A stretch of 64,000 nucleotides of DNA from assembly GCA_022225965.2 (NCBI GenBank), contig JAKJXP020000058.1, positions 228,504 through 292,503 of the forward strand. Reading direction: 5' to 3'. Below the pieces are notes generated by a model. That model was not told the origin of the DNA. It saw nothing but the letters and a program-made list of their open reading frames with translations, and searched no databases. The position numbers were made by a program, and so were the translations under genes. Origin of the DNA: Diatrype stigma (taxonomy: Eukaryota; Ascomycota; Sordariomycetes; Xylariales; Diatrypaceae). How positions within the stretch are numbered: position 1 is the stretch's first letter; each line of letters opens with the position of its first letter. Positions 6,865 to 38,415 of this stretch are shown here, one piece after another.

Positions 6865-7741
6865 GTACAAATCGGGTGTACTAAGTATCCGAACAGCAAA
6901 TCTTAGCTATATAACTAACTAATAACTTAAATAACTTAATAACCACATTTACTTAAGATGTAAAAATTAGATATAAGGTAAATTTATATATACGAAATAT
7001 AATACTGGTTTTAAAAATACTTATTTCGTTATATTTATATTAATATTAAGTAATTTAAATATATACGAATTTTTATTATAAATATATATATAAATTATTT
7101 CTTATATAAAAATGCTAAAACGCTAATGCTTATTTATAGTAAAACTGTATTTAATGAATTATATAATAAAATTAAATCCAAGTTTATTCGAATTTTATTA
7201 CGCTTTTTAAAGTTCGTTTAAAATTAAGATATAATATTTTGCATCTTCGCGAAATTTATACCTTTTTAAAAGATATTTTATATATAAGTACATTTCATTG
7301 CTATAAGCATATATATAAAGTTTTACCTTAATCGGATAAGTTTTAAAAGAGTTATATAAATAATTTTCATATAAAGTATTATAAACCTTTACTTTTTAAA
7401 AAATCATTTAAAAATAAAATAAGCTAATAATAACTTCGTTCTTTTAATATTACATAAATCTTTATATAAAGAATATAACGAAAGATACTTCTTGGTTTTA
7501 AAGATTTATTTACCTATATGGTTTATATATATAAAATCGTTAATAAAAATTTTAAATTTTAAAGTTAAATATATCATATAAAGCATTAAAGAAATGAAAA
7601 AACTTTATGCTTATATAAATCCTTATATCGAAAATTATATACCGTAAGAGTTTTGGGTCATATTATGTAAGCGTGGTTGTATTATTAAATAATTTGCGAA
7701 AATAAGAGCCTGTTCGGATACTTAGTACACCCGATTTGTAC
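6865..7741. mobile_element. AT-rich terminal-inverted-repeat element, RIP-degraded (Tc1/mariner-like or MITE)
   Basis: Two perfect 32 bp inverted arms at 6865-6896 and 7710-7741 enclose about 810 bp of extremely AT-rich DNA. The arms begin GTACAAATCGGGTG. A TA dinucleotide at 6866-6867 and 7739-7740 would be the target duplication if the element proper is 6868-7738, as for Tc1/mariner elements. The interior is mostly TpA with a few surviving CpG and almost no CpA/TpG, as expected after RIP. No transposase frame survives. It is either a non-autonomous element or an internally deleted copy. It sits between the choline-oxidase-like and betaine aldehyde dehydrogenase genes. Confidence 0.8.
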
Positions 7742-9105
7742 ATGTTCTCTAACTGTGTAAGCTACTGTATCTTGGCTACGTAAGTAGGTACCATCTACGG
7801 CCGTTTACGTACAGGTCGAGGGTTCAGGGTCTGCGCCAAGCTGCAGAAGAGAGTGAGAGAGTGATTAGTTAAAGCAGGAACGCTGCCGTATTCCAATAAC
7901 TAACAAAACTCGTCTCAGGCGTCCCACCATCGACAAGAGGAAACTGACTCCGCCAAACAGACTAAGGAACGCCTATCGTCGAATCAGAGCTGCTCGCCCA
8001 CACTTCGGCACGGGACTGTACAGCCGCCACGGCTGCAGCACGGTCATGCAAGGCGGCGGTGAGAATGACCTATCCTGGCCATCGTGAGCAACAATTGCCT
8101 ATCAGGGTTTCCCTCTCCTGTCTGTAGCCTCGACAACACCCTGACACCGCGTCGACCGCCTCTTTGCAGGCTGCTAAGGCACTGACTGTAGTTACGGACT
8201 GGTGCCAGGTCTGGCAAGCTGGGCAACCTTGAAGCTTGATGCTTGAAGCTTGAAGTTTAAAGCCGGGTGGGTAGTTGCATGAACTTGCATCGCCGACCAA
8301 CCGTTTTCTTTCTCTCTCTAACTACCCCGCATTATCCCGTCGATTACCAGCATGAAGTGTATCACCAAGTGCTCTGTCATTTCTGTCTCCTGTATGTAAG
8401 TACAACCTCCTGTATAACATCCTGTAACTTATAACCGCCCGTGTTGTACAGCACCTCCACGCCACCACACACACTACCAACTGCTAGTATAGGACTATAT
8501 ACCCGCCAAGTGCCTGCTATGCATACATGTAGTAACACATAGCACGATCGATCTTACGAGAATCTACACGACTACGGCTTCTGCGTGCATAACCTTGATA
8601 CCATACGCCATGCAACCATACATTGTATACATACATTGTACGTAGTTTGGTGCTATAGCGCTCCGTCCGTCCGTATACTAGTCAGTTTAGCGGGAAAGCT
8701 TGCCGGCGCCGTCGAAAGGTTGGGGCAAGAACTCCGCTTTTAGGACCGAAGTATTTCATGCCGTACTTTATGGGGTGAACGTTCGGAGGTTCAGAGGTTT
8801 CGTGCCACCTCACTTGGGACTGCCTACTAACACGTAGTGAAGGCCAATCACAAACTTTGCTATCAGCCTCTCAGCCCTTGTTTTCCCTACGGTCGGGGCC
8901 GGGAGCATCACGGGGGACATCAGGGTATCGACCGATAATAGGCAGCTTGCAGGTCAAATACATAGGTATGTATTGTATGTATGTATGTACGAGTTCCACT
9001 CTTACCCACGTCCCGGGACACTGTAGAGCATTACCCTATCATCTCTAAGGCAGCATTCTACAGTGCTACGGTAGTTGATTCCATTACATGAGATATGCAG
9101 GTATG
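7742..9105. other. Intergenic region, no gene seen
   Basis: About 1.4 kb of mixed composition with short TG/CA and GTAT-rich runs (for example 8962-8990). Open frames are short with no coding character on either strand. Confidence 0.5.
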
Positions 9106-25416: not shown

Positions 25417-26044
25417 CTAGCACTGCGGTCGTGGCAATGGCATCCCCGATGGTTTGAAGTCCTGCAGAGTCGAATCGGCATCGTGATTCGGGAAGATTCC
25501 CATGGACGCGAAGCCGAAGGTGGCTTTGTTGGTATCATCGAACATCTGCGCCGACAGCACATGGCCCGGCCTCCACTCGCCCCCCGCGTAGCACCTGATG
25601 GACTCCTCGATCTGGTCGTACCCGCCCGCGGCGTCGAACGACGGCTTCGCCGGGTCGGCCTCGCGGGCGTTCTCGTCGAAGCGGCCCTCGAACACGTGGT
25701 CGGACAGCCGCTCGTGCTGGAAGCTCTGCCGCGCCTCCAGGCCGCCGCCGTTCGCGTACGAGATGGCGACGCGCGTGTGGTTCACGTGCCGCCGCGACGC
25801 CACGTCCAGGAGCCCGTGCCGCGGGTGCCGGATCCGGAAGATGGGCGCCCGCGGGTGCGCGTGCTCGTCGTCGCGCCCGCTGAGCCGGTGGCCGTCCGCC
25901 ACGTAGCCCAGGAACTCGGGGGGCGTCGCGCCATCGGAGCCGAAAGCGCGGTGCAGGACCTCGCGCGCCAGGTGCTCGTGCAGCTCCTATTGCAGGTCCT
26001 GCGAGCGCTTGCTGAAGACGTCGAGGTCGATGTACTCGAGGCCC

Positions 26045-26052
26045 GAATCGAC
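26045..26052. repeat. Target site duplication, left copy (8 bp)
   Basis: GAATCGAC, identical to the right copy at 29391-29398. Both belong to the interrupted gene's coding sequence. Confidence 0.9.
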
Positions 26053-29000
26053 CAGCGATGGCAGCAATTCAATTAATTTTTTAATTAATTAATTTCTTAA
26101 TTAAATTGTCTTTATTAATTAACGGAATCGTTTATTTTGATTAAGATAAGTAATGGTCTTTTTTAATTGGTTCTTTTTAACGATTATTAAGTATATAACG
26201 CGTATTTCGGCGACCGTAATGCCGATTAAGAATTTTCCGAAAGCATATACCAAAAGCCTATCCGTATTATTTATAAATAGAAATTACGAGAATTATTTAA
26301 TATTTCGAAACCCGGTTTAATACGGTCGAATTAATTCGGCATTTCCGATTATTCATTCCTAAGATATAATATTGGATTTGCTATATTTTATATAAATAAA
26401 TAAAGCTTCCGTTAACAATTTATTATTTCAAACCGCCTTTATTTTTATTAATTTAATAAATTATTTCCGCCATATATTTATAATATTTAATCCGTTTTTT
26501 TAGTTACGCCAAGGCGTTATTTTTTTTTATGCCTTAAAGGTTTTTTTTTGCCAATAATTCTTTAAGAAAGCCGCTTTTATAAAGCCCAATGCCAACGTAA
26601 AAAAACTTCTTTACGTAAAGATTGGCAATACTAAATATATCGCCCATTCGTAATTCGAATCGAATACGAAATCCGGTATTTTAAAGCATGGTAAATATAT
26701 TATCGAAATCCTTAACGTCGAAAACGAAAACGATATTTGCAATGTTCGTTTTAATAATAAATAGTAATATTATTATCATTATAATTAAAAAAGCCTTATT
26801 AAAAAATATAAAGCTTAAATAACCAATAATCCTAAATATTATTTTACGAAATACCATTGCGTTATTATTACCGATTAAACGGGAAATACGCCTAATAATC
26901 CGTTTAATAGCCAAAAAGGCATATTCGTTTTTTCGATTTATTAATAAATTAGGAATTATATTTAACGATAATTTATACGAAATACGATAAATAATTATAA
27001 ACAACAGCTATTAAAAATAATTACGATATATAACATTTTTTCGGCTATTTACGTTCGGAATTAATTTTAGGAATTGCTGGCTTTTTTTAACCGTACCTTT
27101 GCGGATAAAATTTTTCGTAATTCTTATTATACCATTATCGCTTAATTGGAAAAACTTTTTTAATCCGCCCATACCGCCATTATATAGCAGTTTCGTAACA
27201 ATGCCTTTTCGAAAATCCATTTTTCGTTTAACATATAAGAATTCCCAAACAAAAAAAGGGTACTTAAAATAATTGCTTATTTTATAAACCGACAATAAAA
27301 GCTTTAAATACGGCTTATTATAATACAGCAAATAACGGGCAATTATATCGCAAAAAACATGTTATTTTATTTTTAAAATGTATTAAATTTATATAGCATT
27401 AATTACCGTTTTGAATTCTTTATTTTAAATAATGCAAAAAATAAGTTTTTTATTTAAATTATATGAAATAATTATTAATAAAATATTCCCAATTAATAAT
27501 AAAGCCTTTCGCCTTATATTCGAAATATTCTTATTCCTTATATCGCCGATATTTCCTTTTATTAAATATAAGGCCCAGCAAATAATAATTACGTAGCGCT
27601 TATATTATTAAGGGCACATTATTAATATTATAGCTATTGCCTTTATTTTTATAAAAAAGAATAACAGCAATGCTAAAACGATTATTATTAATTCCGTCGA
27701 TAAAATTTATAAAATTAATAATTTTATACGATAAAATGCCCCGCAACGCGATACTTTCCGGCGAAAAATATAGGCCTTTAAGGCTGAAAAGGAAGCCGTC
27801 GATTGCGAAATCGTTAAGGAAACCGTTAACGAATTTTTCGAAAATGCTAACGATAAAACCGATAAATTCGAACATTTTATTTTATATGTCCTTATTTACG
27901 ATTCCGATAACGAAAATGAATTTAATTGCTTTCTTAAGGTTTATAACGATATAAAATAAAACGGAATATTATATAAAATACGTAATTCCTTAAACTTTAA
28001 GAAACCCATTAATCGATTTTATTATTTTTAAGCGCAAATATCGAATAAAGAATTTCGGATAACCTGGAAACACAAAATTAATTCCAAAAAATAGCATACC
28101 CTCGAAATAATACGAAGGATTTTTCGTATTTTCGAAAAAATAACGTTATAACATAAAAAAAATCGTAACAATATTAATATAATAATGCCTTTATTATACG
28201 AATTAAAAAAAAACCTTCGGCGGAAACTAAATAAATTCAGGTTATTAAAGGAAAACGAAAATAATATATGCCCCTTTTTTTTAACCGTTATATAATTACT
28301 TTTGCTAATACGGTATATATCAAAACGATTTATTGGATTTTTTCTAATTTATTGATGCCTTTTAATACGGCATATTCCAATATTTCCAAACGCCTTTTTA
28401 ATGCATTTTTAAACGCAAAAGAATCCTTATTAAACGCGGCTTCGAAGCTATAATCCGATTAAATACCCGCAAAAAAAAAAAGGCAAATGCCCATTTTAAT
28501 CGGGCGGATTCCGAAATTTTCGGAAAAAATAATTACAACGAGATCCGGACCGGCTTAAAACGGGCATATAAGAAGCTATAAAAATATCGGAAAGTTCTTA
28601 ATGAGGTAATTATATATTAGGCCTTTATTATTTTTTATTCGGATAAACGTTTAAAAAATATTCGAATATTAAATATCGGCTTGGCTAAAAATATTCGAAA
28701 AAGGATTATTAAATATTAATTACAGCAATACGCGAATTCCGATAAAGCTATTAATTTGGATATACCTTTTAATTCGGGCGTTTCGAAGAAAGCCGATGAA
28801 ATTACGGTTATTTTCGGGCCTTTAATCCGGTTTCGGAAAAAAAAAAAAAAGCTTTCCTTTATTAGCGCCTTATTCGATAATACTGCTTTCGAACTTACGA
28901 ATAACGAAAATAACGATAAATTTTAACGTTTCCTTACGATAAAAAAAACGGGCTTTACTTTTTTAAATAAAGATATAATTAAATAATAAAAGGATTACCG

Positions 29001-29390
29001 AAAGAATTTCCCTAAGCTTAGCCGTTTTGCAATTAACGTTTTTTCGGCGCCCCTTATATTCGTTAAATATAAAAGGATATTTAGCCAATATAAGCTAACG
29101 ATAATTTCGCAACGAAATAACATTAAGATTTCCTTACTTAAAATTATCCAATGCTTAAAGCATTGGTTTAAAAACGATTCGAAAAAATTATAAAGAATAA
29201 TTAAAGATATAACAGTAAATGCCGAACCTTTAGCAAATTCGAATTAACGTACGAACCGGTCTTTATTTAATTAAAAGCTTAATTATATTAATTAACTTCA
29301 AAACGCGAAAAAAAAGCTTCTTTTTTAATTATAATTATATTAATTAAAAAACTCGAAATCCTTTAATTAATTTAATTGCTGCCATCGCTG
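26053..29390. mobile_element. hAT-superfamily DNA transposon, 3,338 bp, RIP-degraded
   Basis: The terminal inverted repeats start CAGCGATGGCAGCAATT and match over 26 bp with one mismatch (26053-26078 and 29365-29390). They are flanked by an exact 8 bp duplication GAATCGAC at 26045-26052 and 29391-29398. An 8 bp duplication and ends beginning CAG are hallmarks of hAT elements. The size is close to full length, but the interior is about 75-80 percent AT, keeps CpG, lacks CpA/TpG and has stops in all frames, so no transposase can be read; the AT-rich frames near 26681-27331 (-) and 27670-27954 (+) are not genes. Orientation cannot be set. Confidence 0.9.
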
Positions 29391-29398
29391 GAATCGAC
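29391..29398. repeat. Target site duplication, right copy (8 bp)
   Basis: GAATCGAC directly abutting the right terminal inverted repeat of the hAT element. Confidence 0.9.
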
Positions 29399-29869
29399 CC
29401 ACTTGTTCTGGGCCCGCGCGAACCAGCCGGCGCTGCTCGCGGCCTGGAAGCCGGTCCCGATGCTGAGGAGCGTCCCGGCGAGGCCGAAGACGCAGCCGGC
29501 GACCGACCAGGGGCTGCCGTCGCTGGTTACGCAGCCTTGGACGCTCGTGATGGCGCCCCCTAGGTCGACGGCGACTTGCAGGGCCTGCCAGGCGAGGCCG
29601 GCCGCGAAGGCGAGGAAGAGCACGTCGTGGCCGTCGAGCACGCCCGGGTTGCCCATTCGCACGAGCGCGGAGTCGGCGGGGAGGGGGTTCTCTGTCAGGT
29701 TGATGTACAAGCCGTTCCATTGGTCCTTAGGGGCGACCTCGAACATGGTCCAGTTGTAGTCGTCGGGGGTCCATGGCTCTTCGGCTTTGCAGCTCGGGAT
29801 GAGTGCAAGGGCGAGGATGAGATGCAGGAAAAGCGCACCTCGGGCCATGCTGAGAGCCATTTTGTTCAA

Positions 29870-31607
29870 GAAAGGAGTGATTTGGTTCAGCGTAGCTGAG
29901 AAAGGCTCAGCAGAGCTCCGTAGTGCGTAGTGATATCGTGATTGATTCCACGAAAGTTTGACGAGTGGTGGGATGGGCTAGAAGATGTCAAGGGGAGTTT
30001 CTGAACAAGGGCCTGTCGAGCTCTGCTGCAGGTAGCGGATGAGGACGATATGACGAACGGGCATATTTATATCCATGCTGGAGGATAAAGTCGCTACGTG
30101 CAACTCTCCCAGCTATCACGACTTGTGAGGCACAATATCGCATGACTCTCACAGCCTATCTTCCGAGGAGATAGACATGTTTCTCCCGTATAGCAAGGTC
30201 AGTAAGGAAGCTTTGAGCGTGGCGTGACTTGATGGACATTCGAAGCCTGTACTATCAGATCCTGGCCAACATCTTCTGCTATCCTGTATCTCACTCATCA
30301 CCAACCAACCGTATAGATCTTGGTCACGATATGACTATGCTATCAGACAATAAGACCATGGAGTTGGAACTTAGCTGCTGCAGTTGGCGCTTTTCGATTA
30401 GTTAGTCAGTCAGTGATCAATAGATCTGCGCTCGAATGGATCCATGTCAGATATAAACCATGTGAAATGTGTTTAGGTGCAGCCTTTTGCGACTGTGGTC
30501 ATCCAATATCATTCTTAATATTGTAACCCTAAAGACCGTGAGTGGAAAAGAGTTGCATCAATTGTAATCGGTTCTATGGAACTCAAATGCATGACGATCA
30601 GTTGCTTGTAGGGACTCCGCGGCTTCAATATGTTTGGAGCAACATCATTACCCCCCATCTTAATAGCAAGTAACTATAACTCCAAATGGTCAAACGCAGT
30701 TATAAGGTCCCCGAAGCCCGATAGAGACCACATTTTCAACATGGGATATACGGACTGAGATCACACTTTTCAGCATCAATGACAATCTCGATAAGCCATA
30801 TTGTCTCGAGGGATAAGTGTACTGCCTTGAGTAATCGGCGAGCACCTCAAAGTATGATCCTCGTTTATTGCCTAGTAGTGTTGGGGTTTAGATGCTCTTA
30901 GATGCTTTACGTAGGCAATCATTTCTTGAAAGGTTGGTCCAATCAAGTCAAAGGGTTTACAGGTATTCTTCACGCGGTAGATAATATGGTGATCATGGAG
31001 CAATAGCAATCAAGCAAACAGCAGTCGAGGGGACTCTCCACGTTATAGCAAGCCACCTAGTAATAGACTTTGCCCAGTTTTGACCTTTATGGCTAATAGG
31101 GGAAGACGAGTTATCATGATACTAATCACCTGGGAAAAGGGGTCAGTAACCAAGTTGGGGAGATCGTAGGGGAAGCATTATTGTAATGGCAAATGCTCTA
31201 TCATTCAATACATATAAACTGCCGGGGGACTGTTACAATGACTCAAATGAGGACGCTCACCCATTGTCAGTATTACGTCAGGCTTGATCGCTATGCAATG
31301 CCCGCCCAGCATTGACAATAGGTTTCGCCTTCAAGTTATCTTCATATACAAGACCGTGGTCATGCATTATGCGTCGTCTATCCCAAGAACCCCTGCTGGA
31401 CCAAAATCCTCCAATGCCTCGCAAGTCCCAGCATTCCCAATCCCGTCCTATCCCATCGTGCGAGCACGTTTGACGCCAGCTAACACGCCCAATAAGCCTT
31501 TCCACCTCCCCCAAAAGTACAGACCATCCCATCAATATCATCAACATTCATCCCATCGTCATCATCCATCGTTATCGTCGTATCGTAGCTCCAAGAGCCT
31601 TTGGTCG
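29870..31607. other. Intergenic region, no gene seen
   Basis: About 1.7 kb between the upstream side of the split gene and the 3' end of the Zn2Cys6 regulator. No frame longer than about 90 codons has coding character; no clear repeats found. Confidence 0.5.
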
Positions 31608-32289
31608 CTAAAAGCCAAAAACGAAATCCGGCCGTCCGGCAAAGTACTCGTCCCAGGTGACGTGGGTGCCCTTGGGGGCGGCGGCGTCGGCGGCCCACTT
31701 GCCGCGCAGCTCGTCGACGGCGCCGATGGGGCCGAAGGTGCCGCAGGCCTGGCCCACGCGCTCGAGCCCGCCGGCGATGAACTCCTGCAGGTCCCGGTCG
31801 TTGGGCCCGGCCTCCATCCCGCACACGAACATCGGGAAGAACACCAGCTTGCCCAGCGTCTTGGCGCTCTCGTGGTCCGTGAAGATCGGCGCCAGCGATG
31901 AGCGGAGCGCCTGTCGCGCCTCTAGCCGCAGGGAGATCAGGTCTAGATCCTCGTCGAAGTCTTGCTGGTCCGGCTCACCTCCTGAGCTTCCCCCTGCTGC
32001 TGCTCCTGACCCTGCGACTGCCGCTCCCGTTGTTGTCGCCTCGTACAGGAACGACTTGTCCTCTGGCAGGTCAAGGATAAGCGTACGGATCGTGTATAGT
32101 AGAATCGCCGCCTGGTAGATGATGGCGATGTTCAGCCACAGATCGGACTCGGGGATGCCTGAGGTTCTGGCGGTCAGACCGGGAGTGCTATAAGGAGGGG
32201 ATGGGAGGTTGTGATGGTATTGGTTTTGATATTGGTGCTTGTGCTGGTGATGGTAGTCGGAAGCAGGGAAACCGGTCTGACCTCGTTGG

Positions 32290-32328
<39 letters not shown>

Positions 32329-34079
32329 CCCGGGGTGGCGCCACCACCATCACCACTACTGCGTGCGGTGCGCGGTTCGTCGAACTCCACGCCATCGCCC
32401 GTCTTCTTCCACCCCCGGAAGCTCTTCATCCGCGTCGCCCACCTCGCGGGGCTGAAGGCGCGGAGCTTCTTGAGCACCATGCGCGTCATCGACTGCCGCC
32501 GCGACTTCAGCTTGTCCCTGTGCGCGATGGACCGCAGGTAGTTGACCATTATGAGTGTCTGGAACAGCTCCTCGGGACAGGGCGAGCTGACGCCTAGGTT
32601 GTACTGGAATATGTCGGACTCGACCTCCCAGTAGTGCAGCGCCATTGACGCGGCGACGGCCATGTATTTATGTGTTGATGGCGTCGTGGTCGCTGCCATC
32701 ACGTCGATGCTTTGAGAAGAACATTTGCGTAAGAACTTGTACGGCCAAGACCGGGAAGGAAAGATAACAACCAAGACGGCACGGCAAAAGTAACGCGACA
32801 GAATCCACTTACCAAACAAACAGGGCCATGAGAGGCTTGAAATATGGATTCTTCCCAATAATCTCCTTCAACCCACCCCGTAGTTGGATAATTCTCCGAG
32901 CACCCTCTAGGTGAACTCTCCAATCCGTATAAGCGGATTGCTGCATCTGATTGAATAATATCAGCATAAGTATATATTTGCCAAGATATGTTTGATAACG
33001 ACCGCAGGATCACTGGGGACATCGCTTTTGCCAAAGTGGTTTACTCACTGTTGATAATAGAAGACATATCACGCACATCAGCGTCGAATCACTGGTCTGG
33101 GTGTCACTCTTGCTCAGCCGATTGTTGACCTCCTGCAAGGCCTGAATGCGGAACCTGAATATGTCTGCTTCCCTGTGCATCAGGGCGGTCGAACGTATGA
33201 AACTTTCATCTTGTTGCATCGACATATGCAGGGTCGCTGTCGTCACGAGCAAGTTGACGTAGATCCTAGGGATCGTGTCTATCCTTCGAAGACTGACTTG
33301 GTATGGATTGAAATGGGAGGAGATTGATATCAGGTCACCGCTGACACGGTCGTTGACTAAGATAGTGCAACGTTAGCAAGTGTTCCATGGGTGTGTGCGG
33401 GCGTGCCTGCATGCGTGCATGCGTTCATGCGTGTGCGCATGAATGCATGATGCATTCTGACTCGACAGCAGCAAACCGTCGAGCAACGAATGGGTGTGGG
33501 TATAAGTGTGTGTGCTCGTGGGTGTGTGGGCGAAGTCGGGGATATATGAGCATGAATAAGCTGGCTAAATAGCTAGCTCGCGACGAAGCTCGCAACCAGA
33601 TGTTATGGCTAGCTAGAGGAAGATAGAAAGAGGGAGGGAGGGAGGCACTAACAGTAACTAATTCCATCAAATATAATCTGCGCTTCCTTGTATTGCGACG
33701 GCACCGGATCCAAGGCGATGCTGCCGCTACTGTTGCTGCTACGTTCAGCTCTCCGCCTCTCTTCGGGTACGTGTTCCGAGCTGAACCGCGTGAGAATTCC
33801 GCGTCCACCACTACCGTCGCGGGCCACATCCACATCCACCGTCTCGGCAGCAGCAGCAGCAGCAGCAGGGTCCGCTTCGGATTGGTATAGTCTGGCGCCG
33901 GTGTTGCTGCTACTGCTACTGCTGCCACTGTTGTTACGGCTACTGGCACTGCTGGGCGTGGCGTCGTAGCCCGAGCACCTAACGTTATTCGATCTGCACC
34001 GCGTGCATGCCGGGAGCGCGCCGTCACATTTAAGGCGACGCTGGCGACACCGCCGACAGCTGGGCGGAACCATTTGCAT
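31608..34079 (-). CDS. Zn2Cys6 fungal transcription factor
   Basis: Four exons on the minus strand: 34079-33653, 33356-33049, 32946-32813 and 32709-31608; 656 residues. The N-terminus has a perfect binuclear cluster, Cys8 to Cys35 (C-x2-C-x6-C-x6-C-x2-C-x6-C, SCRRCRQRRLKCDGALPAC), then a Ser/Ala-rich linker. The rest fits the fungal-specific regulator domain of the C6 family: YFNDRVSGDLISIS, then TDWRVHLEGARRIIQLRGG in exon 3, and HKYMAVAASMALHYWEVESDIF in exon 4. A linker of eight Glu-Pro pairs lies near the middle of exon 4, encoded by a 6 bp tandem repeat. The C-terminus ends WDEYFAGRPDFVFGF. Target genes are unknown; the nearest gene is the transposon-split one, so no regulated cluster can be named. 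Intron 1 is unusually long (296 bp) and contains GT/GC-rich repeats. Confidence 0.88.
32295..32331. repeat. Hexanucleotide repeat coding for Glu-Pro
   Basis: About six units of CCGGCT on the plus strand inside exon 4 of the Zn2Cys6 gene, read as Glu-Pro pairs on the minus strand. Likely length-variable. Confidence 0.85.
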
Positions 34080-37000
34080 CGGACAGCAGCAACGATGATG
34101 TATGCATGTTTCTGCTGCTGCTGCAGGCGCGAGCGGGCGGCACGCACGGAGAGGGGGGGGGGGGGGACGGGGACGGGGATGGGGACAGGGAACGCGGAAC
34201 GGGGAGCGGCGGGGTTAGAAGAGGGTTTGGAAAGGGAGAGGTCGTTTTCGTTGTTGCTGCTGGTTAAACTAATACCAACTAGTGGCAACCACCTGTTTCT
34301 ACGCCGCTGCGTTGCAGCAGTTTACATGTAGGCAGTATGGATGGTGTCGAACACGGCAGCGGGCAGCATCATCGCGGCGAGTTGAAAGGGGGTTCATTGG
34401 GAAGCCCGGTCAAATACCTGCTAATAACATATTCCCTAGACTACGTACGGTACGAGCTATGTATTTAGTCCCCTATTCCCCTCCCCTCCCCCATGCCAAT
34501 GGCCCCCTCACACAAGAGGCCGCCGCACAAAAGTTCGCGTGCGTTCCAGGCAGTTGCTTTTCACTAGGTATTCGCTTTTCGTTCGCACAACCCCTGTCCA
34601 ATGTTGTGACATCCTTGCGTCGCCTTGCGTCGCCTTTCTTCCCTGCTTTCTCTCTCTTTTCTCCCCCACCACTTGGCACGTCTGCATCCCGGAAACCCCC
34701 AATCCCCCCCTTTCATCGTTGCTGTCCGCTCACCTCGAGGAAGCAAACCGGCGAAGTAAAGAGATGTGAGCCAAGCGTAGTCCTACACGAACAAGGCGCC
34801 TATTGGTCCCGCGTAGCTGATTGCGCCCCATTGCTCAGCGGACGGGCAGACGGGAAGCGAAGCGGAGTTCTTTACGGTGGAGCTTTTGCCCAAGATCGCT
34901 GTATCATCCTGTATTACCCTGTATTATAGGGCCACTAAACAACCTCTATCGATCGATGTGCGGCTTATTTCTGACCTATCATCACTGCCAACATCGATGC
35001 TGGGCCTTCAAGATCTTCCTCGGACTTGGACATGCCAGACACCTGATAGGTTCCCTCACAAGCTGATCTATTGATTGTACAGCCTTTCCTTACCAAGCGA
35101 TAAACAAACATCTATTTTTGTGAGGTAGCAATAGCCGTCTACTATATAAATTCGACGCGTACGAATGTGGAGCGATATCCACGGCTGTCGCCAATAACCA
35201 CAGATACCTATATGGTCAGCTTGTCACGGTGTAAGGAGAGACAGGGGTTTTTGTGAACGGGGTTCGGCCTTTCCGCGTGGTGGGACGTGGACGGAGAAGA
35301 ACGAGCGGTGATGGCTAATAAGTATCACGGCCCGAATGACAAGGAAATACAGCATGTATGCGATTTGCTCAATAATACGTTGGATGCGCTAAGGAAAGGG
35401 GCAATGAGTTTTCGCTGCAAAAATCGTATATATCTATATCGTGAAAGTTCGACTGTCAATCCGCTTCGCCATGGATGGTTAAGTATGCACGAGTACTATC
35501 CCCGCCGTTCCACAGTAGAAGGTTAGAAGCAGCTTGAAGCAGCAAGTCCGGGCAATAGTAATCCAGATAATAACTACACAGACTAGTTTCATACCCAAGA
35601 AATCTGTCATCTCGTCTAAGCCCCGGCGGGTTAGATAGGGCTTAGCATACGAGCGTATAGGAAAGGAGTACCATATCAAGTGGGTAGGTAGACACGTGCC
35701 CGTCAGATGGGTTATTGGCCGACATCTCGCTCGCTGCACATGGTTATTTACTGAAGAAGCGAGCGCTGGGCAAATGGAAGCTTCCTCTTACGGATGACCA
35801 AAGAACCAACCATCGTGACCGCGGTGGGTCATCCTGTTTGTTGTCAACTGCGAACTGCAAACCTGCTATGTAGTAGACACGCCGTAGGTGTCACGGTTGT
35901 CTTTCCGAATATATCTCAATAGTTGAGAGCGGGGGCCGGGATTGTTATACATATCTAGGTAGGTCTCACCGTCTGAGAATTGCCCAAGCCCTTAGCCTCA
36001 AAGAGCCAGCCTGAACTACACCTAAGGCGAACGAAACGCTAATTCTTGTGTGTACAAACATGAGTAAGGAGCGGCTGAAGCGTCAAGGCGGGTAGGTAGG
36101 TAGCCAGTGAATAATGCTGCCGCCCGTATTAATCGTGATCAGCTCGGTCAGCCTCACCCCGGATACATACCTCTTTCAGCGCAAGATTGTCACCCTCTTG
36201 TAACCAGCACCGCTAACTGAGACATGATTGGGAGTGAGTTCCTGGCATCCATGATGGCTGATGATTGCTGTCAGCAGGGCACATGTAGGTGCACCTTGGC
36301 CTTTGGCTCACCACCCGTGGCTGACCCGTGGTGATGGTAACGTCGCGATTAGACAGGGTAGTCGGGTATATAACTAGTAAAGTCTGGTATATAGAGTGAT
36401 TCTGAGAACGGATTATGAACCACCGCGAATTCGGGTCGGGTGTGGTCCCACATCCCACAAATCCATCTTCGGGCGAACTATTCCGAGATCTTGCTCATCG
36501 CGACATTCGGATCAACCATTTAGTGAGATAGCCAGAGAGATACATATACATAGTATACATGAACTTGCTTTGACCTTGAGCGACTTTGGTTCCCAGCCGT
36601 TCTCGGTGGTTATAAATGGACATGCAAAAAGTCCATAGTTATGCAGCATCAAAAATATACCTATGGCCTAAGCTGCTATAATACTCGGGGATTGTATGAA
36701 GCTGGTGGGGTATTGCCCCTATAAGCTGTCATCCAGATTGTGTACTACTTCAGTGGTGGATTAAGATAACAGGCTGTGACGTAGTTGCGATGCTATGAGT
36801 GAGGATAGCTACATAGTTATAAGCCGTTGCATAAAGAAAAGCATAAGAATATCCATAATGGATTATATAAGCCCAAACTCAAACTCTCACAGAGCAGATG
36901 TTAGGCATTACCTGCCGCTTTGGTCATTGTTGCTTTGATACGTACTTGGCATCGATTTCAGTGTCCATGTTGGTTCTCCCCTTGGCCCGCCTTCCTCTCG

Positions 37001-37399: not shown

Positions 37400-37667
37400 T
37401 ACCTTACCGCGCGGGGGGGGTTTTTGGAGACGGTCCCGGTGATCGATACGGCGCTAGGGACAGTTACAAAATTTGGTGCTGGTCTCCAAATATCCGACAT
37501 GATCCTGGGGATAATCACCCATACAAGCCCATGCCAATACCTGGCCACCGTCACCGGACGGAAGTCACTTTTTCACCGAATTGATCCCTAGGACCACTTT
37601 AAGTCCAAGACCGTTTCCGGCTGCCCAGACCGTCTGTATAAATCACCCACCCAAATTACAGTGCTGC

Positions 37668-37903
37668 ACTTACAGCTGCACCTACAATTGCACCTATAGC
37701 TGCACCTACAGCTGCATACCTACAATTGCACCTATAGCTGCACACTTATAATTGCACCTACAGCTGTACACCTACAATTGCACCTACAATTGCACCTACA
37801 ATTGCACCGCTACAGCAGCGCTGCTGCAGTACGTACATACAGCTGTATTGCTACAGCTGTATTGCTACAGCTGTATTGCTACAGCTGTATTGCTACAGCT
37901 GAC
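37668..37903. repeat. Two adjoining tandem arrays built on CANNTG palindromes
   Basis: The first array (about 37668-37808) has roughly twelve units of 12 bp, CTACARYTGCAC, each holding CAGCTG or CAATTG. The second (about 37839-37903) has four units of 14 bp, TACAGCTGTATTGC. There are no spacers of unique sequence. Confidence 0.85.
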
Positions 37904-37996
37904 CTGTACCGGCAAAACCTGGGCTGTAGGTGGCTATATATAAACAAATAAGCTAGGTGCTTGTATGTGACTGTGTGACTAGTAGTAAATTTCTGA

Positions 37997-38062
37997 TTGG
38001 CGTAGTGGTTAAACCTTAAGCTGTAAGCCGTAAGTGCAGGGTTCGAATCCCGACCGTAAAAA
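37997..38062 (+). other. tRNA-like pol III promoter module (SINE-type)
   Basis: TTGGCGTAGTGGTTA at 37997-38011 matches the A box and GGTTCGAATCC at 38040-38050 matches the B box perfectly, spaced as in a tRNA. The T-arm has only three good pairs (GGG/CCC), and the anticodon and acceptor arms do not close well, so a functional tRNA is unlikely; a tRNA-derived SINE head fits better. Confidence 0.55.
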
Positions 38063-38358
38063 TAATTTTTGTACTTAATAACGTAATATAATATTTCATA
38101 ATTACATATCTCTTATAATAATACCGTATAAATAAATAATAATAATAATGGAAAATATATTTTTTTAAAATTATATATAATACAAGACCGTCTTTAAAAT
38201 TCAAAACCGTCTTGAAATTTTAAGACCGTTCCTTAAATAAAAATCGTCTTGGCCGCTAGTCAGTCTTTTGAAAGTCCTCAACCAAGGACCGTCCCCACTG
38301 CTGGATTCGATCCCCGGGACCGTCTCTAAAACCCCCCCCCCGCGCGGTAAGGTATGTA

Positions 38359-38415
38359 GGTACATACATACATACATACATACATACATACATACATACA
38401 TACATACATACATAC
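38359..38415. repeat. (TACA)n microsatellite
   Basis: About 13 units of CATA/TACA directly outside the right inverted arm. Confidence 0.9.

What the first reader, a model, noticed from the sequence alone, without database searches (positions are those of the whole stretch)
25417..29869. A gene split by a hAT element, with the ancestral frame exactly preserved on both sides
The element has CAG-beginning inverted ends and an exact 8 bp duplication (GAATCGAC). Leaving out the element and one duplication copy, the flanks total exactly 369 codons and run straight through. The empty site of a recently lost gene is therefore readable. The gene has a signal peptide, two hydrophobic segments and a hydrophilic C-terminal half that I cannot place in any family.
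Basis: partly seen in the sequence, partly recalled or inferred. Interest (0 to 1): 0.75.

Follow-up and report, generated by a model that had tools for sequence, protein, structure and literature searches.

The report
Killer-toxin-like fungal gene split by transposon
In this fungus a gene that looks like the precursor of a yeast-type killer toxin (a secreted protein used against competing fungi) has recently been cut in two by a jumping gene that was then mutated beyond use; gene loss this way is ordinary, but it points to a little-studied family of killer-toxin-like genes in filamentous fungi.

Summary
The hAT insertion is real: element 26053-29390 (3338 bp), 17-bp perfect CAG ends, exact 8-bp duplication GAATCGAC, a hAT dimerisation domain with stops inside, related copies in the genome. 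It is heavily RIP-mutated: against its closest copy 474 transitions but 2 transversions in 3333 sites, so the copies were nearly identical until recently. But the flanks do not run straight through: an in-frame TAG lies at 25987-25989, the 19th codon past the split one, and the first ATG is at 29860, not 29869 (366 triplets, not 369). The protein is otherwise undecayed (101 of 106 conserved positions kept), so both lesions look young. K45 is the only significant hit of a fold search, but from one medium-confidence model. What remains encodes signal plus alpha region, like truncations recurrent in yeast killer-toxin genes. Verdict: ordinary mechanism, moderately interesting host gene.

The parts
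26053..29390 (+). hAT-family DNA transposon copy, 3338 bp, RIP-mutated, without a working transposase frame
   Evidence: 17-bp perfect terminal inverted repeats, 8-bp duplication, PF05699; related copies elsewhere in the genome; CpA o/e 0.46, CpT 0.59, CpG 3.04
26045..26052 (.). left copy of the target-site duplication GAATCGAC
29391..29398 (.). right copy of the target-site duplication GAATCGAC
26053..26069 (+). left terminal inverted repeat, 17 bp
29374..29390 (-). right terminal inverted repeat, 17 bp
28972..29169 (+). remnant of the hAT C-terminal dimerisation domain, 2 TAA inside
   Evidence: (C58:257475-257672)
29391..29860 (-). 5' part of the split gene: signal-like segment, delta-like stretch and hydrophobic alpha-like hairpin (relative P0004 positions 1-156); with the split codon and 5 codons from the element it is the 162-aa protein P0063
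25417..26044 (-). 3' part of the split gene: alpha/gamma junction, gamma-like and beta-like regions (P0004 positions 158-359), interrupted by one TAG; the part after the TAG is in the protein collection as P0001 (190 aa, its first M not encoded next to it)
25987..25989 (-). in-frame TAG stop, at a column that holds a sense residue in 18 of 18 rows of A1
29861..29959 (-). 33 codons before the ATG with residual similarity to the N-terminal extension of long relatives; further upstream only in another frame and with a stop

Best explanation
Shown: a hAT transposon inserted into a minus-strand gene (single copy as far as its C-terminal part was searched), duplicating 8 bp, and the element is riddled with RIP-type transitions (repeat-induced point mutation). 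Shown: relatives in other fungi carry the gene uninterrupted as one protein, mostly of about 350-430 residues. Inferred: the protein is a K1-superfamily killer preprotoxin, nearest in layout to K45 of Saccharomyces paradoxus. It would enter the secretory pathway, form one disulfide in the hydrophobic alpha hairpin and one in the beta part, be cut at basic sites by a Kex2-type protease, and as an alpha/beta toxin insert its hydrophobic helix into membranes of competing fungi. Inferred: the present allele cannot make that toxin; at most it makes a 162-residue secreted fragment with the alpha-like hairpin. Inferred from the lack of decay: both the insertion and the extra stop are recent.
For: hAT: 17-bp ends, 8-bp duplication, PF05699 E 3.4e-6. 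Of nine copies whose two ends could be read, five have exact 8-bp duplications (this one, C16, C43, C11, and C6 across a gap read as a nested insert), three differ at one base (C14; C139 and C128 across gaps) and one at two (C102). RIP and youth: against C102, 474 transitions and 2 transversions in 3333 sites; against C139, 350 and 6 in 2447. One gene: pieces abut at P0004 156/158; the 189-aa C-terminal piece has one match at E <= 1 in this genome, itself. Undecayed: 101 of 106 columns that are at least 80% conserved are kept, inside the leave-one-out range 0.58-1.00 of 44 relatives. Killer-toxin layout (44 rows): cysteines at P0004 110 (41 of 41 rows with a residue), 123 (42 of 42), 302 (40 of 43), 359 (38 of 40), plus 24 in the signal region (28 of 30); KR or RR at 169-170 in 40 of 44, at 208-209 in 33 of the 43 listed, at 255-256 in 28 of the 41 listed. 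K45 is described with five cysteines, one in the signal, and domains 57-179, 180-267, 268-370 (PMC13211469 section 2.5); here the basic sites end at 170, 209 and 256 of 359. The core described for the superfamily (central helix after a disulfide, strands, then strand-helix-strand-strand; section 2.7) is the order in the model. Foldseek against viral models: K45 killer preprotoxin first, E 3.9e-4, probability 1.00, 294 columns, the only one of 364 matches at E <= 0.001.
Against: The fold match rests on one model with mean pLDDT 57 and pTM 0.49; TM-score 0.37, rmsd 11.6. The weaker model of another member (pLDDT 45) did not find K45. No sequence search reached a named killer toxin; Pfam gave nothing at E <= 0.001 for the 18 and 15 members scanned, and DUF5341 of the K2 family was not listed. 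In the window's own gene only the first of the three Kex-type sites is dibasic; the other two read GR and AR. No activity is known for any of these proteins. The transitions between copies fall in all four CpN contexts, not only the depleted ones. RIP before insertion is not excluded: a RIP-mutated copy could have been moved by another copy's transposase.
Confidence: 0.62

Rival explanations
1. The insertion is as described, but the gene is a secreted or membrane-bound Kex2-processed protein with another role (for example a source of processed peptides, or a cell-surface protein), not a killer toxin.
For: No sequence-level link to a killer toxin; where a source gives a name it is 'hypothetical protein'; Kex2-processed repeat proteins of largely unknown function are widespread in fungi (PMC9769878, search listing and start of abstract only).
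Against: The combination of cysteines, position of the basic sites, length and order of secondary structure matches the description of K45, and the fold search puts K45 first.
Confidence: 0.3
2. The in-frame TAG came first: a truncated allele ending just after the alpha/gamma basic site was already present, and the hAT element landed in a gene that was no longer needed.
For: Two lesions in one gene; the stop is the sixth position after the basic pair (P0004 176 against 169-170), and truncations that leave alpha plus a little gamma are the common kind in yeast KKT genes (PMC7888664 section 23).
Against: The left flank shows no further decay (66 of 68 conserved positions kept over its two pieces), so any head start was short; a RIP leak from the element 63 bases away would give the stop after the insertion.
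Confidence: 0.35
3. The stop is a leak of RIP from the element into the flanking single-copy gene.
For: The element is RIP-mutated and the stop is 63 bases from its end; the stop is of the kind that RIP can make; the unequal duplications of C14, C139, C128 and C102 differ by transitions only. CpA is at 0.76 (left) and 0.68 (right) of expectation in the 200 bp next to the element.
Against: No clear wider RIP signal: TpA counts in the nearest 200 bp (3 left, 2 right) are like those further inside the gene (3, 1, 3); CpA is as low (0.72) 200-400 bp away on the left; over the whole flanks CpA and TpG are at 0.85-1.06.
Confidence: 0.45
4. The two parts are two separate genes and the element is intergenic, as the protein collection has it (P0063 and P0001).
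For: They stand as two proteins on the 292,503-base contig.
Against: P0063 ends in five element-coded residues; 18 of 18 rows of A1 have both parts in one protein, with the break inside a conserved stretch.
Confidence: 0.02

Closest known systems
hAT superfamily DNA transposons of fungi (PF05699 dimerisation domain)
   Same: Inverted ends beginning CAG, 8-bp target duplication, C-terminal dimerisation domain near the 3' end
   Different: This copy has no open transposase frame; RIP-type transitions throughout
K45 killer preprotoxin of Saccharomyces paradoxus (K45 family, K1 superfamily)
   Same: Length 370 against about 359; five cysteines, one in the signal; basic sites dividing alpha, gamma and beta at matching places; best fold match
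   Different: Only 14% identity over the structural alignment; K45 sits on a double-stranded RNA satellite, this gene on a 292,503-base contig; activity not shown; K45's dibasic motif within alpha has no shared counterpart
KKT (K1-like killer toxin) genes and their truncated copies in Saccharomycotina (PMC7888664)
   Same: Genome-encoded killer-toxin genes, with inactivation leaving the alpha part
   Different: Those are multicopy, mostly subtelomeric genes, eight of the aligned proteins being cut by premature stops; here one gene is split by a transposon and has one stop besides
K2 family (K2, K21, KHS)
   Same: An N-terminal extension before the signal-like segment (section 2.4.2), as in the long relatives
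   Different: DUF5341 of the K2 family was not listed for the members scanned

Membership tests
hAT transposon | 8-bp target-site duplication | tested here: met
   GAATCGAC twice, exact; of nine copies with both ends read, five exact, three with one mismatch, one with two
hAT transposon | short terminal inverted repeats beginning C/T-A-G (motif recalled) | tested here: met
   CAGCGATGGCAGCAATT, 17 of 17
hAT transposon | hAT transposase with C-terminal dimerisation domain | tested here: met
   PF05699 27.2 bits, cut-off 21.4, read with X at stops; 2 TAA inside; no other hAT domain at E <= 1 in the three plus-strand frames
RIP-mutated repeat | transitions in excess among copies, with depletion of particular CpN dinucleotides | tested here: met
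   474 transitions, 2 transversions in 3333 sites; CpA 0.46, CpT 0.59, CpG 3.04. Against a strict CpA preference: transitions between copies are seen in all four contexts
K45 family / K1 superfamily killer preprotoxin | signal sequence, then delta-alpha-gamma-beta layout set by Kex-type basic sites | tested here: met
   KR or RR in 40 of 44 at 169-170, 33 of the 43 listed at 208-209, 28 of the 41 listed at 255-256; hydrophobic N-terminus. In the window's gene KR, GR, AR. Cleavage itself not tested
[quoted passage not shown]
   cysteines at 110 and 123 in 41 of 41 and 42 of 42 rows with a residue there, at the end of one model helix and near the start of the next; the cysteines are shown, the bond is not
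K45 family / K1 superfamily killer preprotoxin | core of two helices and one antiparallel sheet, ending strand-helix-strand-strand | tested here: inconclusive
   order of elements agrees in a model of pLDDT 57; K45 top Foldseek hit, E 3.9e-4; not reproduced with the pLDDT 45 model
K45 family / K1 superfamily killer preprotoxin | sequence homology to K45 | tested here: inconclusive
   three protein searches reached no named killer toxin; K45's own sequence was not at hand
K45 family / K1 superfamily killer preprotoxin | secretion, Kex2 processing and killing of fungi | not testable with these tools
   no expression or activity data
K2 family | DUF5341 in the C-terminal part | tested here: inconclusive
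   not among the nine families listed at E <= 10 for 15 members, but HMMER's filters drop weak matches

The most novel reading that the evidence does not exclude
The transposon did not simply destroy the gene: it turned a killer-toxin gene into a secreted alpha-only allele (162 residues: signal, delta-like stretch and hydrophobic hairpin with its cysteine pair) that still protects its bearer against the intact toxin of neighbours, the filamentous-fungus counterpart of the alpha-retaining truncated KKT genes of yeasts.
Probability: 0.08. Interest if true: 0.7.

Novelty: new member of a known kind. Interest (0 to 1): 0.42.

Why it matters
The insertion itself is a textbook event. Its use is that it points to a family of proteins, called hypothetical wherever the collection gives a name, that looks like genome-encoded K45-type killer preprotoxins in Xylariales and other filamentous fungi and in Mycena mushrooms. 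[quoted passage not shown]

Full report
What is there. The element lies at 26053-29390 (3338 bp). Its ends match each other perfectly over 17 bp, and the 8 bp GAATCGAC stand on both sides. Read with X at stops, one plus-strand frame holds the hAT dimerisation domain PF05699 at E 3.4e-6, above the curated cut-off; the genome-wide search found the same stretch with two TAA inside. The own-genome search returned 30 matching stretches, five of them end to end, this one included. Of nine copies whose two ends could be read, five have exact 8-bp duplications (this one, C16, C43, C11, and C6 across a gap that I read as a nested insert), three differ at one base (C14; C139 and C128 across gaps) and one at two (C102); every difference is a transition.

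The element is dead and RIP-mutated. GC is 26.7% against 67-69% in the split gene; CpA is at 0.46 and CpT at 0.59 of expectation while CpG is at 3.0. The ten copies compared have GC of 24-30%. The copy here and the one on C102 differ by 474 transitions and only 2 transversions in 3333 sites, and by 350 and 6 in 2447 sites from the piece on C139; C16 differs by 587 and 118, and the six others by 238-305 transversions. The first three were thus nearly the same sequence not long ago and were mutated separately since. One result is not what strict CpA-directed RIP would give: the transitions between copies fall in all four CpN contexts (for example, C here and T in C102: 43 CpA, 39 CpT, 38 CpC, 17 CpG), though neighbouring bases may have changed too. 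A date in years would need a rate that I do not have.

The split gene. Relatives were sought with the left flank (36 proteins at E <= 0.01, one of them the window's own), then with a profile (67 proteins, two of them the window's own pieces), then with a profile of distant members (22 proteins). Named ones include Hypoxylon, Hypomontagnella, Monosporascus, Nemania, Poronia, Xylaria and Apiospora (Xylariales or near, from recall), Neofusicoccum, Tricladium, Cudoniella, Pseudogymnoascus, Paecilomyces, Aspergillus, Penicillium and several Mycena; the names given are 'hypothetical protein'. The closest to the left flank is Hypoxylon sp. FL0543 at 73%. In A1, 18 of 18 rows span the break in one protein. 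Laid against 44 relatives as separate pieces, the right flank covers positions 1-156 of P0004 and the left flank 158-175 and 177-359. The 189-aa C-terminal piece has no second match in this genome at E <= 1; the N-terminal piece was not searched for there.

The left flank has an in-frame TAG at 25987-25989, at a column that is a sense residue in 18 of 18 rows of A1. The triplet count of 369 starts at a TTG; from the first ATG it is 366 including the final stop. The protein collection shows the result: two proteins, P0063 (162 aa, the last five residues from the element) and P0001 (190 aa, the stretch after the TAG with an M before it that is not encoded there).

How recent. Of the columns that are at least 80% conserved in the relatives, the window keeps 35 of 38 in the right flank, 7 of 7 before the TAG and 59 of 61 after it; the same measure for 44 relatives, each left out in turn, runs from 0.58 to 1.00. 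The protein has not visibly decayed on either side of the lesions. Next to the element the gene shows no clear wider RIP signal: TpA is not raised, though CpA is somewhat low (0.68-0.76) in the nearest 200 bp on both sides, as it also is 200-400 bp away on the left. The TAG is compatible with a leak of RIP but also with an independent earlier or later change.

The 5' end. The thirteen rows used (two of the fifteen were left out because their N-termini differ) have 44-100 residues before the position of P0004's first methionine, ten of them 63-67. The 33 codons before the window's ATG resemble that extension better than 20,000 of 20,000 shuffles and better than every other 99-mer of the window on both strands (1 of 127,804 reaches the score, itself), yet with only 3-12 identities of 33. 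Further upstream a weaker similarity goes on in another frame and over a stop (best E 0.004 in a search of 1500 bases). I read this as an extension that this lineage had given up before the insertion. In the long relatives the signal-like segment is then internal, as described for K2, K21 and KHS (PMC13211469 section 2.4.2).

What the protein is. In 44 rows the cysteines at P0004 positions 110 (41 of 41 rows with a residue), 123 (42 of 42), 302 (40 of 43) and 359 (38 of 40) are nearly invariant, and one more lies in the signal region in 28 of 30. Basic pairs KR or RR stand at 169-170 (40 of 44), 208-209 (33 of the 43 listed) and 255-256 (28 of the 41 listed). The window's own gene has KR, GR and AR there. 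In most full-length members the hydrophobic stretches are the N-terminus and the two helices around the first cysteine pair. This is the layout given for K45: 370 residues, domains ending at 179, 267 and 370, five cysteines of which one is in the signal, a disulfide before the central helix and one that pins the tail (PMC13211469 section 2.5). A monobasic gamma/beta site is described there for K74 homologues (section 2.6). The same paper describes one core for the K1, K2, K45 and K74 families, ending in strand, helix, two strands (section 2.7); the model built here from 44 sequences has that order (strand 268-274, helix 293-304, strands 313-320 and 325-335). A Foldseek search of viral protein models put K45 killer preprotoxin first with E 3.9e-4 and probability 1.00, the only one of 364 matches at E <= 0.001. 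Against this: the model is of medium to low confidence, the superposition is loose (TM 0.37, rmsd 11.6), a poorer model of another member did not find K45, and sequence searches did not reach any named killer toxin. I therefore say 'works like, probably a member of' with somewhat under two in three confidence and do not claim proof.

What the break does. In P0004 numbering the element sits in codon 157, after the hydrophobic hairpin and 12 residues before the basic pair at 169-170; the TAG is at 176, six positions after that pair. Both lesions remove most of gamma and all of beta and leave signal plus alpha. In yeast KKT genes inactivation is biased to truncations that leave alpha and a little gamma, the part that in K1 is the minimum for immunity (PMC7888664 section 23). 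[quoted passage not shown] cerevisiae (PMC13211469, passage), so a lone alpha fragment could also harm its maker. Two lesions in one gene are too few to show a bias here, and nothing tested shows that the fragment is made. This is kept as the bold reading only.

Novelty and interest. Transposon insertion followed by RIP is well known. The gene is a new, broken member of a family for which I saw no name; whether it is already on a published list of K45 homologues could not be checked. Papers: PMC13211469 (outline with abstract, sections 2.1, 2.3.5, 2.4.2, 2.4.4, 2.5, 2.6, 2.7 and passages), PMC7888664 (section 23 and passages), PMC12875307 (passages); all others as search listings with starts of abstracts.

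Noticed in passing
6865-7742: An 878-bp element, GC 19%, with perfect terminal inverted repeats of about 32 bp and, by eye, TA at the insertion site; three other end-to-end copies at 97%, one split in two on C40 at 96-98%, one at 72% on C171. Unlike the hAT copies it is AT-rich yet little diverged, so it probably spread after becoming AT-rich.
   Followed up: partly
C11:61538-62189, C12:132333-132816, C2:1160261-1160393 of the window's genome: Short matches to one or both ends of the hAT element, probably internally deleted relatives; the C11 one has an exact 8-bp duplication CATGCAAC.
   Followed up: partly
C78:216463-216666, C147:1601-1804, C37:225520-225684 of the window's genome: Other hAT dimerisation domains in this genome with no or one stop inside (15 matches in all), so transposase sources may have existed recently.
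   Followed up: no
31611-34214 (minus): A Fungal_trans_2 domain and a Zn(2)-Cys(6) cluster next to the split gene, possibly one transcription factor gene with introns.
   Followed up: no
37663-38415: Tandem arrays: degenerate 12- to 52-bp periods, a perfect 14-bp array and a (TACA) run of 13.8 copies within about 750 bp.
   Followed up: no
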